Below, piece after piece: positions 4,008 through 9,996 of a stretch of 64,000 nt of DNA. Every line of letters starts with the position of its first letter. The first letter of the stretch is position 1. The notes under the pieces are model-generated. The model saw nothing but the letters and a program-made list of their open reading frames with translations. It ran no database searches and was not told the origin of the DNA. The DNA lies in assembly GCF_013205025.1 (NCBI RefSeq), contig NZ_JABMLE010000002.1, positions 124,001 through 188,000 on the forward strand, written 5' to 3'. This stretch comes from Rathayibacter sp. VKM Ac-2857 (lineage in GTDB: Bacteria > Actinomycetota > Actinomycetes > Actinomycetales > Microbacteriaceae). Position numbers and translations under genes: made by a program.

Positions 4008-4610
4008 GTGAACGACTCGATCCAGCCGGGCTCCGCGCACCGCACCGCGGAGGACGCCCCCGTCCCGCGCGCCCCGCGCCTGCGCGGCATCCTCTTCGAC
4101 CGCGACGCGACGCTCGTGGTCGACGTGCCCTACAACGGCGATCCGGCGCTGGTCGAGCCGATGCCCACCGCGCTGGACGCGGTCGAGCGGGCCCGCGAGG
4201 CGGGGCTCGCCCTCGGCGTCGTGACGAACCAGTCGGGCATCGCCCGCGGCATCATCGACCGCGCGCAGGCCGACGCGGTGAACCGCCGGGTGGACGAGCT
4301 GTTCGGTGGCTTCGACGCGTGGATGCTCTGCCCGCACGGCCCCGAGGACGGGTGCGCCTGCCGCAAGCCCGCGCCGGGCATGGTGCTGGATGCCGCGCAG
4401 ACCCTCGGGCTGCCCGCCGACTCCCTCGCGGTGATCGGCGACATCGGCGCCGATGTCGGCGCGGCGGCGGCAGCCGGGGCGCGCGGCGTGCTCGTGCCGA
4501 CCCCGATCACCCGGGCCGAGGAGGTGGCCGCCGCACCACTGCGCGCGGCGACGCTCCTCGAGGCCGTCGAGCTGCTGCTGGCGATGCAGCCGGACGAGGA
4601 CGCCGAATGA
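4008..4610 (+). CDS. gmhB: D-glycero-D-manno-heptose-1,7-bisphosphate 7-phosphatase-like HAD phosphatase
   Basis: HAD-IIIA phosphatase of 200 residues, first gene of the heptose operon. Motif I is FDRDATLV, with a Thr-containing variant of the usual DxDGTL. Motif II/III appear as VVTNQSGIARG and GDIGADVGAA. The zinc-binding loop CPHGPEDGCACRKP (Cys-x-His ... Cys-x-Cys) is the hallmark of GmhB. It is expected to remove the 7-phosphate from heptose-1,7-bisphosphate between the kinase and nucleotidyltransferase steps of HldE. Its stop overlaps the next start by ATGA. The GTG start was chosen because the promoter ends just upstream; alternatives would be internal. HisB-type histidinol-phosphatase is a less likely alternative. 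Confidence 0.85.
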   Translation: MNDSIQPGSAHRTAEDAPVPRAPRLRGILFDRDATLVVDVPYNGDPALVEPMPTALDAVERAREAGLALGVVTNQSGIARGIIDRAQADAVNRRVDELFGGFDAWMLCPHGPEDGCACRKPAPGMVLDAAQTLGLPADSLAVIGDIGADVGAAAAAGARGVLVPTPITRAEEVAAAPLRAATLLEAVELLLAMQPDEDAE

Positions 4611-5677
4611 CCCGCCGCGTGCTGGTGGCCCGGCTCGACAGCGCCGGTGACGTGCTGCTCTGCGGACCGGCCGTCCGCGCGATCGGGGCCGACGCCGAGG
4701 TGCTGCTGCTCGCCGGCCCGCAGGGGGCGCCCGCCGCGGCGCTGCTGCCAGGGCCGGTGGCCGTGCGCACCTGGTCCTGCCCGTGGATCGGCGACGCCTC
4801 GCGGCCGGTCGACGCCGCGCTCGTCGCGGAGCTGCGCGCCATCGTCGAGGAGTTCGCCCCGGACGAGGCCGTGATCCTCACCTCCTTCCACCAGTCGCCG
4901 CTGCCGCTGGCGCTGCTGCTGCGCCTGTCCGGCGTGGCGCGGATCTCCGGCGCGTCCGTCGACTTCGCCGGCGCCCTGCTCGACGTCCGGCTGGTGCCCG
5001 GCGAGACGCTCGAGGAGGACCAGCCCGAGCCGGAGCGCGCCCTCGCCATCGCGGCGGCCGCGGGCTTCGCGCTGCCCGAGGGTGACGACGGGCTGCTGCG
5101 GGTGCACCGGGGAGGCAGCCTCCCCGCTGCGCTCGCGGGCGTCGGACCGTACGTGGTCGTGCATCCCGGTGCAGCGGTTCCCGCGCGGGCCTGGCCCGCC
5201 GAGAACGCGGCGCGCGCGGTCGAGCTGCTCGCCGACTCCGGAGTCGCGGTCGCCGTCACCGGCGGCCCCGGCGAGCGCGCGCTCACCGCGCAGGTCGCGG
5301 GCAGCCGCGGCATCGACCTCGGCGGCGCGACGGACTTCGCCGGCGCGGCCGAGGTGCTCGCCCGCGCCGAGGTCGTCATCAGCGGCAACACCGGCCCGGC
5401 ACATCTCGCGGCGGCCGTCGGCACGCCGGTGGTCAGCCTGTTCGCGCCCGTCGTCCCGGCGATCCGCTGGGCGCCGTACGGCGTGCCGGTCGAGCTGCTC
5501 GGCGATCAGCACGCGGCCTGCGCCGGGTCGCGCGCCCGCGTCTGCCCCGTGCCCGGCCACCCCTGCCTCGCGGGGGTGAGCGCCGAGGAGGCGGTCGCCG
5601 CCGCTCACCGGCTCCGCGCGCTCCCGCGCCGCGACTCCATGACATCCACCACGACACCCTCGGAGGCGCTCGCATGA
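4607..5677 (+). CDS. Glycosyltransferase family 9 (heptosyltransferase-like)
   Basis: Second GT9 protein, 356 residues, starting at an ATG within the ATGA overlap with gmhB. It begins RVLVARLDSAGDVLLCGPAVRAIG, the typical GT9 start. The C-terminal domain has VHPGAAVPARAWP, VAVTGGPGER and SGNTGPAHLAAAVGTPVVSLFAP. Lying inside an operon with gmhA, gmhB and hldE, it is the best candidate to use ADP-heptose as donor. The acceptor is unknown; without LPS it could be a cell-wall glycopolymer or lipid-linked glycan. It ends in a second ATGA overlap. Confidence 0.88.
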   Translation: MTRRVLVARLDSAGDVLLCGPAVRAIGADAEVLLLAGPQGAPAAALLPGPVAVRTWSCPWIGDASRPVDAALVAELRAIVEEFAPDEAVILTSFHQSPLPLALLLRLSGVARISGASVDFAGALLDVRLVPGETLEEDQPEPERALAIAAAAGFALPEGDDGLLRVHRGGSLPAALAGVGPYVVVHPGAAVPARAWPAENAARAVELLADSGVAVAVTGGPGERALTAQVAGSRGIDLGGATDFAGAAEVLARAEVVISGNTGPAHLAAAVGTPVVSLFAPVVPAIRWAPYGVPVELLGDQHAACAGSRARVCPVPGHPCLAGVSAEEAVAAAHRLRALPRRDSMTSTTTPSEALA

Positions 5678-7994: not shown

Positions 7995-8623
7995 GCATCG
8001 ACACCGTTCTGGACACCCCGACCGACGCCACGACCGACGCCGCCCGGCGCCTCGTCGACGACCACATCGCCCGCTCGCTCGACGTCGTCGCGCAGCTGGA
8101 GCGGCACTCCGACCGGATCGTCGCCTGGGGCGCCGAGCTGGCCGACCGCCTGCACACCGGCGCGCGGCTGCTCGCGGCCGGCAACGGCGGCTCGGCCGCG
8201 GAGGCGCAGCACCTCACGGCGGAGCTGGTCGGCCGCTTCGACGGCGACCGCATCCCCTTCTCCGCGATCTCGCTGCACTCCGAGACCTCGAGCCTCACCG
8301 CGATCGGCAACGACTACGGCTTCGACCACGTCTTCGCCCGCCAGGTCACGGCGCACGCCCGCAGCGGCGACGTCGTCGTGCTGCTCTCGACCAGCGGCCG
8401 CAGCGCCAACCTGCTGCACGCGGCCGAGGCTGCGCGCGCGGCCGGTGCCCGCTCCTGGGCGCTCACCGGCGACGGGCCCAACCCGCTGACCGAGGCCTGC
8501 GACGAGTCGATCGCCCTCGAGGGCCACGGCTCGAACGTGCAGGAGGCGCAGCTCGTGCTGGTGCACGCGCTCTGCCGGGCCTTCGAGCACCGGATCCGCG
8601 TGCGGACGGGGGCGGCGGCGTGA
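7991..8623 (+). CDS. gmhA: Phosphoheptose isomerase (SIS domain)
   Basis: SIS-fold isomerase of 210 residues that converts sedoheptulose 7-phosphate to D-glycero-D-manno-heptose 7-phosphate, the first committed heptose step. The substrate loop GNGGSAAEAQH begins near residue 63 and includes the zinc-ligand His. STSGRS binds phosphate, and the late motif QEAQLVLVHALC carries the second active-site His. The length matches family GmhA. It overlaps the upstream GT4 gene by ATGA and hldE by GTGA. Sedoheptulose 7-phosphate would come from the pentose-phosphate pathway. Confidence 0.92.
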   Translation: MSIDTVLDTPTDATTDAARRLVDDHIARSLDVVAQLERHSDRIVAWGAELADRLHTGARLLAAGNGGSAAEAQHLTAELVGRFDGDRIPFSAISLHSETSSLTAIGNDYGFDHVFARQVTAHARSGDVVVLLSTSGRSANLLHAAEAARAAGARSWALTGDGPNPLTEACDESIALEGHGSNVQEAQLVLVHALCRAFEHRIRVRTGAAA

Positions 8624-9996
8624 GCCGCCTGCGGATCGCCGTGGTCGGCGACGTGATGCTCGACGTCGACCTCTCCGGGCCGGCCGAGCGGCTGAGCCCC
8701 GACGCGCCCGTGCCCGTGGTCGACGTGTCGACCCGCGGGGTGCGCGCCGGCGGCGCCGGGCTGGTGGCGCGGATGCTGGTGCGCGACGGCCACGAGGTCG
8801 TGCTGGTGACGGCGCTGGCCGACGCCGCCGATCCCGATGCGGCCGAGCTGCTCGCCGCCCTCGACGGTGTCCGCGTGGTCGCCGGGCCCTCCGGCGCGCC
8901 GACGCCCGTGAAGACGCGCGTCGCCGCCTCCGGCCAGGCCGTCGTGCGCTTCGACCGCGGCTGCGAGCGCCCGCCGGTGCCGGGCGTGACCGAGGAGATG
9001 CTCGCCGTGCTCGGCGAGGTCGACGCGGTCGTCGTCGCGGACTACGGCCGCCGGCTCACCGAGGACGCCTCGCTCCGCGCCGCCCTCGACGCGCTGACGG
9101 TGCCGCTGGTCTGGGATCCGCACCCGCGTGGGACCGAGCCCGTCGCCGGGACGACTCTCGCGACGCCGAACCTGGGCGAGGCGACCGGCTTCTCCGGGGC
9201 GAGTGGCCGCGGCGTCACTCTCGCGGAGACCGCCGCCACCACGCTGCTCGAGCGCTGGGGCTGCGGCGCGGTCGCCGTGACGATGGGCTCCGGCGGCGCT
9301 CTGGTCCGCTCGCGCGGCGCCGGCGTGCCGGTGGTGCACCCCGCCGCCGCGGTGCCGCCGACCGATCCCTGCGGAGCGGGCGACCGCTTCGCCGCCTCCG
9401 CCGCCGTCGCGCTGGCCGGCGGGGCCACCCCCTCCGAGGCGGTCGGCGCGGCCGTCGCCGCGGCCGGGGCCTACCTGCTCGCGGGCGGCGTCGCCTCCCT
9501 CGGCGCTCCGGCCGACACCGCCGCCCTGCACGGGGCGTCGGGCGTGGATGCGCTGCGCGTCGCCGAGGCCGTCCGCGGCACCGGCGGCACCGTGGTCGCG
9601 ACCGGCGGCTGCTTCGACCTGCTGCACGCCGGTCACGCCCGCACCCTCTCGGCCGCCCGGGCGCTCGGCGACTGCCTGATCGTCTGCCTCAACTCGGACG
9701 ACTCCGTCCGGAGGCTGAAGGGACCGGCCCGGCCGATCATCCCCGAGGACGACCGGGTCGACCTGCTGCTCGCGCTCGAGTGCGTCGACGCGGTCCTCGT
9801 CTTCGGCGAGGACACCCCCGACGAGGCGCTGCGCCGCATCCGCCCGGACGTCTGGGTGAAGGGCGGCGACTACTCCGCCGAATCGCTGCCTGAGACCGCG
9901 ACGGTCGCCGAGTGGGGCGGCCGCGTCCTGACGGTGCCGTACCACGCAGGCCGCTCGACCACCCATCTCGCCGCCGCGCTCGCGCGCGTCGGCTGA
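8620..9996 (+). CDS. hldE: Bifunctional heptose-7-phosphate kinase / heptose-1-phosphate adenylyltransferase
   Basis: Two-domain enzyme of 458 residues. A PfkB-type kinase (residues 1-300) ends with the anion-hole motif PCGAGDRF. A cytidylyltransferase-like domain (residues about 325-458) has GCFDLLHAGH, the HxGH nucleotide-binding motif, and VWVKGGDYS. This is the architecture of HldE, which phosphorylates C1 and, after GmhB, adds AMP to give ADP-heptose. The GTG start lies in a GTGA overlap with gmhA. A second hldE-like gene lies at 23990. No HldD epimerase gene is seen here, so the product may remain the D-glycero form. Confidence 0.92.
   Translation: MSRLRIAVVGDVMLDVDLSGPAERLSPDAPVPVVDVSTRGVRAGGAGLVARMLVRDGHEVVLVTALADAADPDAAELLAALDGVRVVAGPSGAPTPVKTRVAASGQAVVRFDRGCERPPVPGVTEEMLAVLGEVDAVVVADYGRRLTEDASLRAALDALTVPLVWDPHPRGTEPVAGTTLATPNLGEATGFSGASGRGVTLAETAATTLLERWGCGAVAVTMGSGGALVRSRGAGVPVVHPAAAVPPTDPCGAGDRFAASAAVALAGGATPSEAVGAAVAAAGAYLLAGGVASLGAPADTAALHGASGVDALRVAEAVRGTGGTVVATGGCFDLLHAGHARTLSAARALGDCLIVCLNSDDSVRRLKGPARPIIPEDDRVDLLLALECVDAVLVFGEDTPDEALRRIRPDVWVKGGDYSAESLPETATVAEWGGRVLTVPYHAGRSTTHLAAALARVG

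What the first reader, a model, noticed from the sequence alone, without database searches (positions are those of the whole stretch)
4008..9996. LPS-type heptose pathway with three heptosyltransferase-like genes in a Gram-positive
One operon of overlapping genes carries GmhB-like, GmhA and HldE enzymes. On family knowledge these give ADP-D-glycero-D-manno-heptose from sedoheptulose 7-phosphate. They are mixed with GT9, GT4 and another GT gene, and two more GT9 genes flank the operon (2820 and 10923). GT9 is the ADP-heptosyltransferase family of LPS cores, yet nothing here suggests an outer membrane. No hldD is present in the window. The system may build a heptose-containing cell-wall glycan or glycolipid not described for this group. 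ADP-heptose is also a known innate-immune ligand (ALPK1), which adds interest.
Basis: partly seen in the sequence, partly recalled or inferred. Interest (0 to 1): 0.85.

Follow-up and report, generated by a model that had tools for sequence, protein, structure and literature searches.

The report
Heptose-glycan cluster related to cwg
A Gram-positive actinobacterium carries a widespread gene cluster that should make an activated seven-carbon sugar and attach it to an unknown, probably envelope, molecule; it is a relative of the Streptomyces cwg operon, enlarged with a second copy of the sugar-activating enzyme.

Summary
GmhB, GT9, two GT4-type transferases, GmhA and HldE form one tight operon at 4008-9996; two more GT9 genes flank it. 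Outside the reported span the window also has a second HldE (23990-25465) with an aldehyde dehydrogenase and a GT2 gene, separated from the first part by a Nit1C-type cluster. The genus is probably Rathayibacter. The genome has no HldD above cut-off and no LpxC match. [quoted passage not shown] So the heptose idea is supported, but 'not described' only partly: the kind is known, its product is not. New here: the core also occurs outside its class; Microbacteriaceae and Micrococcaceae have a two-HldE form; the two HldEs are separate clades with different NTP-site and kinase motifs; a SigB/SigF-type promoter-like site precedes gmhB in 43 of 49 loci with a SigB/F gene nearby (pattern widened after a first look). 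No enzyme activity, acceptor or export route is shown. Verdict: new variant of a known kind.

The parts
1946..2860 (+). SigB/SigF/SigG-family sigma factor beside the cluster
   Evidence: NCBIfam TIGR02980 209 bits, under its cut-off of 234; a relative within 3.5 kb of gmhB in 49 of 118 upstream regions examined
2820..3842 (-). GT9a, heptosyltransferase-type glycosyltransferase (CwgJ orthologue)
   Evidence: PF01075 77.6 bits; reciprocal best hit of cwgJ, 43%; GD 100%, and in DTGxxH D, T, H 100% and G 96% of 91 relatives
3973..3997 (+). GTTT-N16-GGGTA, SigB/SigF-type promoter-like site before gmhB
   Evidence: GTTT-N15-17-GGG(A/T)A at gmhB in 43 of 49 loci with a nearby SigB/F gene, 16 of 69 others; consensus recalled, pattern widened
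4008..4610 (+). gmhB, heptose-bisphosphate 7-phosphatase (CwgD orthologue); start codon uncertain
   Evidence: DxD and CxH...CxC invariant in 105 relatives
4607..5677 (+). GT9b, heptosyltransferase-type (CwgE orthologue)
   Evidence: PF01075 78.2 bits; LPS heptosyltransferase 1 is the best solved relative, E 9e-11; 58% to cwgE
5674..6681 (+). GTx, short GT4-type GT-B glycosyltransferase, marker of the system (CwgF orthologue)
   Evidence: AF2 model pLDDT 86.7, closest folds PimB' and BshA; 59% to cwgF
6678..7994 (+). GT4, MshA-like glycosyltransferase (CwgG orthologue)
   Evidence: TIGR03449 232.6 bits, below its cut-off 462.5; 54% to cwgG
7991..8623 (+). gmhA, sedoheptulose 7-phosphate isomerase (CwgH orthologue)
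   Evidence: TIGR00441 137.8 bits, below its cut-off 209.45; 67% to cwgH; His, Glu, Gln, His motif positions 100% in 102 relatives
8620..9996 (+). hldE1, heptose 7-P kinase / heptose 1-P nucleotidyltransferase (CwgI orthologue), kinase CGAGDRF, C-terminal GRSTT
10071..10775 (+). classical SDR oxidoreductase, not HldD
   Evidence: PF00106; Ser, Tyr, Lys 100% in 106 relatives; in 27 of 34 hldE1 loci
10923..12005 (-). GT9c, heptosyltransferase-type, goes with the hldE2 module
   Evidence: PF01075 99.6 bits
22565..22588 (+). SigB/F-type promoter-like site before ALDH (weak: 2 of 67 loci, window included)
22644..23993 (+). aldehyde dehydrogenase of the hldE2 module (start uncertain)
   Evidence: PF00171 355 bits; motif Cys and Glu 98% in 66 relatives
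23990..25465 (+). hldE2, second bifunctional HldE, kinase SGAGDTF, C-terminal EHSTT
   Evidence: TIGR02199 189.9 bits, over cut-off; separate clade
25462..26334 (+). GT2 glycosyltransferase of the hldE2 module
   Evidence: PF00535 50.7 bits

Best explanation
This is the Microbacteriaceae form of the cwg (cell wall glycan) system of Actinomycetota. GmhA isomerises sedoheptulose 7-phosphate, the HldE kinase phosphorylates C1, GmhB removes the 7-phosphate and the HldE nucleotidyltransferase activates the heptose; with no HldD the donor stays D-glycero-D-manno. GT9 enzymes transfer heptose and the GT4/GT2 enzymes add other sugars to an envelope acceptor on the cytoplasmic side, which is then exported by genes outside the cluster. 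A SigB/SigF-type factor, encoded next door, probably switches the operon on under stress, in place of sigma-E in Streptomyces. In this group a second module (GT9c, ALDH, hldE2, GT2) adds a second heptose-activating enzyme, perhaps for a second nucleotide or a modified heptose. Shown: families, motifs, orthology, synteny, promoter-like sites. Inferred: every enzyme activity, donor nucleotide, acceptor, export, stress control.
For: Reciprocal best hits to seven cwg genes of an operon that starts 147 bases after the published cwg sigma-E promoter: gmhB-cwgD 55%, GT9b-cwgE 58%, GTx-cwgF 59%, GT4-cwgG 54%, gmhA-cwgH 67%, hldE1-cwgI 50%, GT9a-cwgJ 43%, six of them in the same order. cwg is a 12-gene sigma-E target induced by vancomycin, predicted to make a cell wall glycan (passages), with cwgH named phosphoheptose isomerase and cwgE a putative heptosyl transferase. 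The core keeps its make-up over the class (34 loci) and outside it. Key motif residues of GmhA, GmhB, GT9a, GT9b, SDR and GTx are 96-100% conserved in 91-119 relatives (the Trp of the GT9b RxW motif only 79%). GTTT-N15-17-GGG(A/T)A at gmhB: 43 of 49 loci with a nearby SigB/F gene, 16 of 69 others, background 0.0054 per 180 bp and strand. HldE1 and HldE2 split with none misplaced (support of that split 0.598).
Against: The window lacks cwgA, cwgB, cwgK and cwgL relatives, cwgC has only a weak match, and no carbamoyltransferase C-terminal domain is found in the genome, so the product cannot be identical. GmhA, GmhB and the HldE kinase score below the curated equivalog cut-offs. GT9b has Asn where heptosyltransferase 1 has Asp in the DTGxxH motif. 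No membrane protein was recognised among the cluster genes, so envelope location is inferred from cwg, whose own product was only 'predicted' or 'putative' in most passages read. The SigB/F-type site is missing at 6 of 49 such loci; with the stricter first pattern (GGGTA only) just 10 of 118 regions had it and I widened the pattern after seeing those sites; the window as a whole has 4 sites, about what the background predicts.
Confidence: 0.68

Rival explanations
1. The cluster makes a soluble, heptose-containing small molecule (a specialised metabolite or a cytoplasmic glycoside), in the manner of septacidin, not a wall glycan.
For: ADP-heptose feeds septacidin in Streptomyces (passages); none of the cluster proteins has a clear membrane span by a simple hydropathy scan (highest 19-residue mean 2.05, in ALDH); GT4 resembles MshA, which acts on a soluble acceptor (acceptor recalled); cwgB is a NodU-type carbamoyltransferase.
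Against: The core is conserved over a class and beyond with little turnover; no scaffold enzyme or exporter was recognised among the cluster genes; the Streptomyces orthologue belongs to the envelope-stress regulon.
Confidence: 0.18
2. HldE1 and its partners handle a sugar phosphate other than D-glycero-D-manno-heptose; the heptose names are only family resemblance.
For: HldE1 kinase domain 132.6 bits against a cut-off of 345, and the clade motif CGAGDRF/L in place of SGAGDTF.
Against: GmhA, GmhB and GT9 travel with it and keep their motif residues; the nucleotidyltransferase domain passes its cut-off.
Confidence: 0.12
3. A recently acquired fragment of a Gram-negative LPS locus.
For: GT9 and HldE are LPS-core families (recalled).
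Against: No LpxC match in the genome, no HldD over cut-off, orthologues mostly in the same order in Streptomyces, Micromonospora, Arthrobacter and outside the class, E. coli HldE falls outside both HldE clades (support 0.455 for HldE1, 0.968 for HldE2). E. coli was the only Gram-negative in that tree.
Confidence: 0.02

Closest known systems
cwg operon of Streptomyces coelicolor (SCO6179-SCO6190)
   Same: Seven orthologues: gmhB, GT9b, GTx, GT4, gmhA, hldE1 in one order, plus GT9a/cwgJ.
   Different: Window lacks cwgA, cwgB (carbamoyltransferase), cwgK, cwgL and a clear cwgC; has an SDR and the GT9c-ALDH-hldE2-GT2 module; GT9a is divergent and upstream; a SigB/F-type promoter-like site before gmhB (the sigma-E consensus was not scanned here).
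ADP-L-glycero-D-manno-heptose pathway of LPS (GmhA, HldE, GmhB, HldD, heptosyltransferases)
   Same: GmhA, HldE, GmhB and GT9 families; window HldE1 is 36% identical to E. coli HldE, clade means 34% (HldE1) and 36% (HldE2); LPS heptosyltransferase 1 is the nearest solved relative of GT9b.
   Different: No HldD over cut-off, no LpxC match; two HldE paralogues; GT4/GT2/SDR/ALDH partners.
NDP-heptose synthetases of actinobacteria and the STTR5 group (Tang et al. 2022, 2024; seen only through commentaries and citations)
   Same: Didomain kinase/nucleotidyltransferase; HldE1 has the Arg of (F/L)xxGRSTT.
   Different: Window HldE1 motif begins with Tyr, not Phe/Leu; HldE2 has His in place of the Arg and Glu in place of Gly.

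Membership tests
cwg operon | Orthologues of cwgD-cwgJ | tested here: met
   Reciprocal best hits at 43-67% identity; six in the same order, GT9a relocated.
cwg operon | cwgA, cwgB, cwgC, cwgK, cwgL present | tested here: not met
   No tblastn match in the window for cwgA, B, K, L at E 1e-3; cwgC only 30% over 139 columns; no carbamoyltransferase C-terminal domain in the genome
cwg operon | Sigma-E controlled promoter | tested here: inconclusive
   A GTTT-N16-GGGTA site lies before gmhB; sigE-cseABC is reported to appear absent outside Streptomyces (passage); the sigma-E consensus was not scanned in the window
cwg operon | Makes a cell wall glycan | not testable with these tools
   Needs chemistry; only predicted for cwg in the passages read
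NDP-D-glycero-D-manno-heptose pathway | GmhA, HldE kinase, GmhB and nucleotidyltransferase with their motif residues | tested here: met
   equivalog cut-offs not reached for GmhA, GmhB and the kinase domain
ADP-L-glycero-D-manno-heptose pathway | HldD 6-epimerase | tested here: not met
   Best genome match 121.5 bits, cut-off 274.6
GT9 heptosyltransferases | PF01075 over cut-off, N-terminal GD, D(S/T)GxxH | tested here: met
   but GT9b has Asn for Asp in all 119 relatives
STTR5 promiscuous nucleotidyltransferases | (F/L)xxGRSTT | tested here: inconclusive
   HldE1 YHAGRSTT: Arg present (107 of 116 in the clade), first position Tyr; HldE2 YVSEHSTT: Arg absent (29 of 72 in its clade have it)
LPS / outer membrane | LpxC | tested here: not met
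   No match in the genome; rings in 4 of 14 control genomes

The most novel reading that the evidence does not exclude
Actinomycetota have their own widespread heptose envelope glycan, and in Microbacteriaceae/Micrococcaceae two HldE paralogues supply two different activated heptoses (for example CDP/UDP-heptose from HldE1 with the Arg motif and ADP-heptose from HldE2) to separate sets of heptosyltransferases, the second heptose further oxidised or reduced by the ALDH/SDR. Such Gram-positives would then also hold ALPK1-active NDP-heptoses.
Probability: 0.25. Interest if true: 0.78.

Novelty: new variant of a known kind. Interest (0 to 1): 0.52.

Why it matters
The passages read on cwg mostly still call its product a predicted or putative glycan. 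Showing that its core is a complete NDP-heptose pathway plus GT9 enzymes, with its GTx marker in 30 of 296 sampled genomes of the phylum, names the sugar to look for and the mutants to compare. The two-HldE form makes a sharp biochemical prediction (different nucleotide or substrate). If right, soil and plant actinobacteria would join the organisms that hold NDP-heptoses, the ALPK1 ligands.

Tried and rejected
Considered and rejected: the SDR as HldD (best matches are classical adh_short/FabG-type families); LPS remnant; the Nit1C genes (12601-22101) as part of the system: they lie between GT9c and ALDH in the window and in same-genus G116, but not in same-genus G045, nor were they found between these two genes in the 11 other family genomes read that hold both. 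hldE2-only loci as self-sufficient: all 12 genomes searched have a gmhA match, and in G327, G068 and G008 it lies away from the hldE2 locus.

Led nowhere or weak: the solved-structure search for GTx gave only distant GT4 hits. A SigB/F-type site before ALDH is not conserved (2 of 67). The first, stricter promoter pattern (GTTT-N14-18-GGGTA, 300 bp upstream) was in only 10 of 118 regions; the looser pattern and shorter region were chosen after seeing that output, so 43 of 49 is not a pre-set test. Neighbour clustering gave two common extra genes, one judged by eye to be cwgB-like (25 of 116 loci) and an NDP-sugar epimerase (21 of 116), none in the unnamed family loci; the taxa of the named loci among them were not checked. 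Paper searches of little or no direct use: (no paper). One search's automatic gene choice was wrong in places (antisense frames), so gene calls rest on homology; the same caller was used, with homology, for the cwg stretch.

Rows dropped: of 199 HldE matches 188 entered the tree, after removing lengths outside 400-620 and identical last 300 residues. Of 116 core loci, 111 with a distinct usable hldE1 were tabulated. Of the 141 sources (window, 20 family, 40 class, 80 named), the 80 were fetched with the GTx alignment, so GTx counts on the full set are biased; the 34-locus count comes from the HldE-domain search, being the hldE1-bearing ones of 40 places that I chose by hand from the list. The promoter count used 118 distinct upstream regions; related loci are not independent.
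Full report
Observation. The six genes at 4008-9996 are as described, each overlapping the next by 4 bases. Family searches give GmhB-like HAD, GT9, two GT4-type transferases, GmhA-like SIS and HldE. The genome (4.6 Mb, 8 contigs, 100% complete) has three GT9 matches, all here. Its best HldD-like match has 121.5 bits against a cut-off of 274.6, and LpxC gives no match while ringing in 4 of 14 controls. 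The nearest named relatives of GTx are two Rathayibacter genomes at 84% identity, so the genus is probably Rathayibacter.

What was missed. A search for the HldE nucleotidyltransferase domain found a second copy in the window: hldE2 at 23990-25465, preceded by an aldehyde dehydrogenase and followed by a GT2 gene. Between GT9c and this module lies a Nit1C-type cluster (MSMEG_0565, 0567 and 0572 families by NCBIfam; the name Nit1C is recalled). In same-genus genome G045, and in 11 other family genomes read that hold both GT9c and ALDH, no Nit1C gene was found between them, so they look inserted.

Conservation. In 20-kb loci from the family the order GT9a / gmhB-GT9b-GTx-GT4-gmhA-hldE1-SDR / GT9c / ALDH-hldE2-GT2 recurs over many genera; L057 and L059 are partial forms. 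In the family sample 18 of 120 genomes have an HldE match over the cut-off; in the class sample 70 of 296 genomes, 40 of 115 genera, have one at E <= 1e-30. Of 40 class loci read, 34 have hldE1 and 6 do not; with hldE1 go GT9b 34, GTx 34, GT4 33, gmhB 31, gmhA 31, SDR 27, GT9a 27, but hldE2 only 7, ALDH 7 and GT9c 2. Some misses are at locus edges. The hldE2 module is therefore a separate unit, joined to the core in many family loci, in Arthrobacter, Paenarthrobacter and Sinomonas, in Goodfellowiella and in a few others. The GTx marker is in 30 of 296 genomes of the phylum at E <= 1e-30, some outside the class; 16 of the 17 such loci read from outside the class (L232-L247 and L249-L251, less L245, L249, L250 and L251, which are more distant forms; and L233, which is cut short) are best judged from the listing, where the typical ones again hold the core.

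The known relative. Passages of two papers describe the S. coelicolor cwg operon, SCO6179-6190, 12 genes, a sigma-E target induced by vancomycin, 'predicted' to make a cell wall glycan, with cwgH a phosphoheptose isomerase; a third calls cwgE a putative heptosyl transferase. I used the published cwg promoter as a pattern: 7 of 295 Streptomyces genomes have it within 3 mismatches, one exactly. In that genome the first gene starts 147 bases after the site, the distance given in the paper, and twelve genes can be read: epimerase, carbamoyltransferase, GT2, gmhB, GT9b, GTx, GT4, gmhA, hldE1, GT9a, GT2, GT2. Reciprocal best hits tie window gmhB to cwgD, GT9b to cwgE, GTx to cwgF, GT4 to cwgG, gmhA to cwgH, hldE1 to cwgI, GT9a to cwgJ; cwgA, cwgB, cwgK and cwgL have no match in the window and cwgC a weak one. 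Three other genomes with the promoter were read: two carry the same core, the third (L260) only a GT4 relative in the stretch. The carbamoyltransferase domain is absent from this genome and from four relatives tested, and present in the two Streptomyces tested. The genome with the exact promoter is unnamed, so its identity with S. coelicolor or a near relative is inferred.

Enzyme state. Motif residues are close to invariant: GmhA His, Glu, Gln, His (102 relatives); GmhB DxD and the CxH/CxC set (105); SDR Ser, Tyr, Lys (106); GT9 GD and (D/N)(S/T)GxxH (91, 119 and 63 for GT9a, b, c; least conserved position 96%); ALDH Cys and Glu 98% of 66 (which residues are catalytic is recalled family knowledge). 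GT9b has Asn where heptosyltransferase 1 has Asp, and its RxW Trp is kept in only 79%. GTx was modelled (pLDDT 86.7) and matches PimB' and BshA, a GT4-type GT-B fold. No protein has a clear membrane span by a simple hydropathy scan.

Two HldE clades. 116 HldE1 and 72 HldE2 sequences split with none misplaced (support of the split 0.598); with E. coli HldE as root each is a clade, HldE2 with support 0.968, HldE1 only 0.455. The labels came from the better tblastn match, so the split tests that labelling. HldE1 has CGAGDRF/L in the kinase and Arg at the fifth place of the C-terminal motif in 107 of 116; HldE2 mostly SGAGDTF and Arg in 29 of 72, His in 33. Two commentaries on Tang et al. 2024 (part 1 of 2 of each text seen) say that this Arg marks enzymes that also accept CTP and UTP, and one says that it is not strictly needed. 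The window HldE1 reads YHAGRSTT, with Tyr at the first place, so the motif is met only in part.

Control. A SigB/F/G-family gene lies beside GT9a. A first, strict pattern (GTTT-N14-18-GGGTA) was in 10 of 118 upstream regions. Seeing GGGAA in many others, I widened it: GTTT-N15-17-GGG(A/T)A is at gmhB in 43 of 49 loci with a SigB/F gene within 3.5 kb and in 16 of 69 without, against a background of 0.0054 per 180 bp; other gene starts have 0 to 3, except GT9c (15 of 63). The consensus is recalled, the choice was made after a look, the loci are related, and the window as a whole has 4 sites, about what the background gives. In Streptomyces the same core is under sigma-E.

Most likely working. 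[quoted passage not shown] GT9 enzymes transfer it and GT4/GT2 enzymes complete a glycan on an envelope acceptor; export is by genes elsewhere. All activities are inferred. Rivals (small molecule; other sugar; LPS remnant) are given with odds.

Novelty. The kind is known (cwg). I did not find, in ten searches of an open-access library (listings, with passages of six papers and part 1 of two commentaries opened), a paper on the two-HldE form, on a heptose chemistry for cwg, or on heptose in Microbacteriaceae; the 2002 cwg paper was not looked up, and two of the Tang papers were looked up and are not held.

Noticed in passing
12601-22101: Nit1C-type cluster (MSMEG_0565 GT, nitrilases, FAD enzyme, MSMEG_0572, radical SAM, MSMEG_0567) sits between GT9c and ALDH here and in G116, not in same-genus G045.
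   Followed up: partly
12166-12440, 22190-22485, 26740-26806 and elsewhere in the window: Short intergenic repeat holding GGGCGTATCGAGA, 24 copies in the window on both strands, some of them flanking the Nit1C cluster.
   Followed up: partly
L259, 15524-17215 (-): cwgB is a NodU-type carbamoyltransferase; genes that look like it neighbour 25 of 116 core loci, none of them among the unnamed family loci, so the glycan may be carbamoylated in Streptomyces but not here.
   Followed up: partly
L249, L250: More distant forms of the system outside the class, with gmhA-gmhB-hldE2-like-GT9-GT9-GTx-GT4-SDR-ALDH in one run and no hldE1 match as best, a possible older arrangement.
   Followed up: no
L057 (G068) and L059 (G008): hldE2-module genes without the hldE1 core in the stretch read, with gmhA elsewhere in the genome.
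   Followed up: partly
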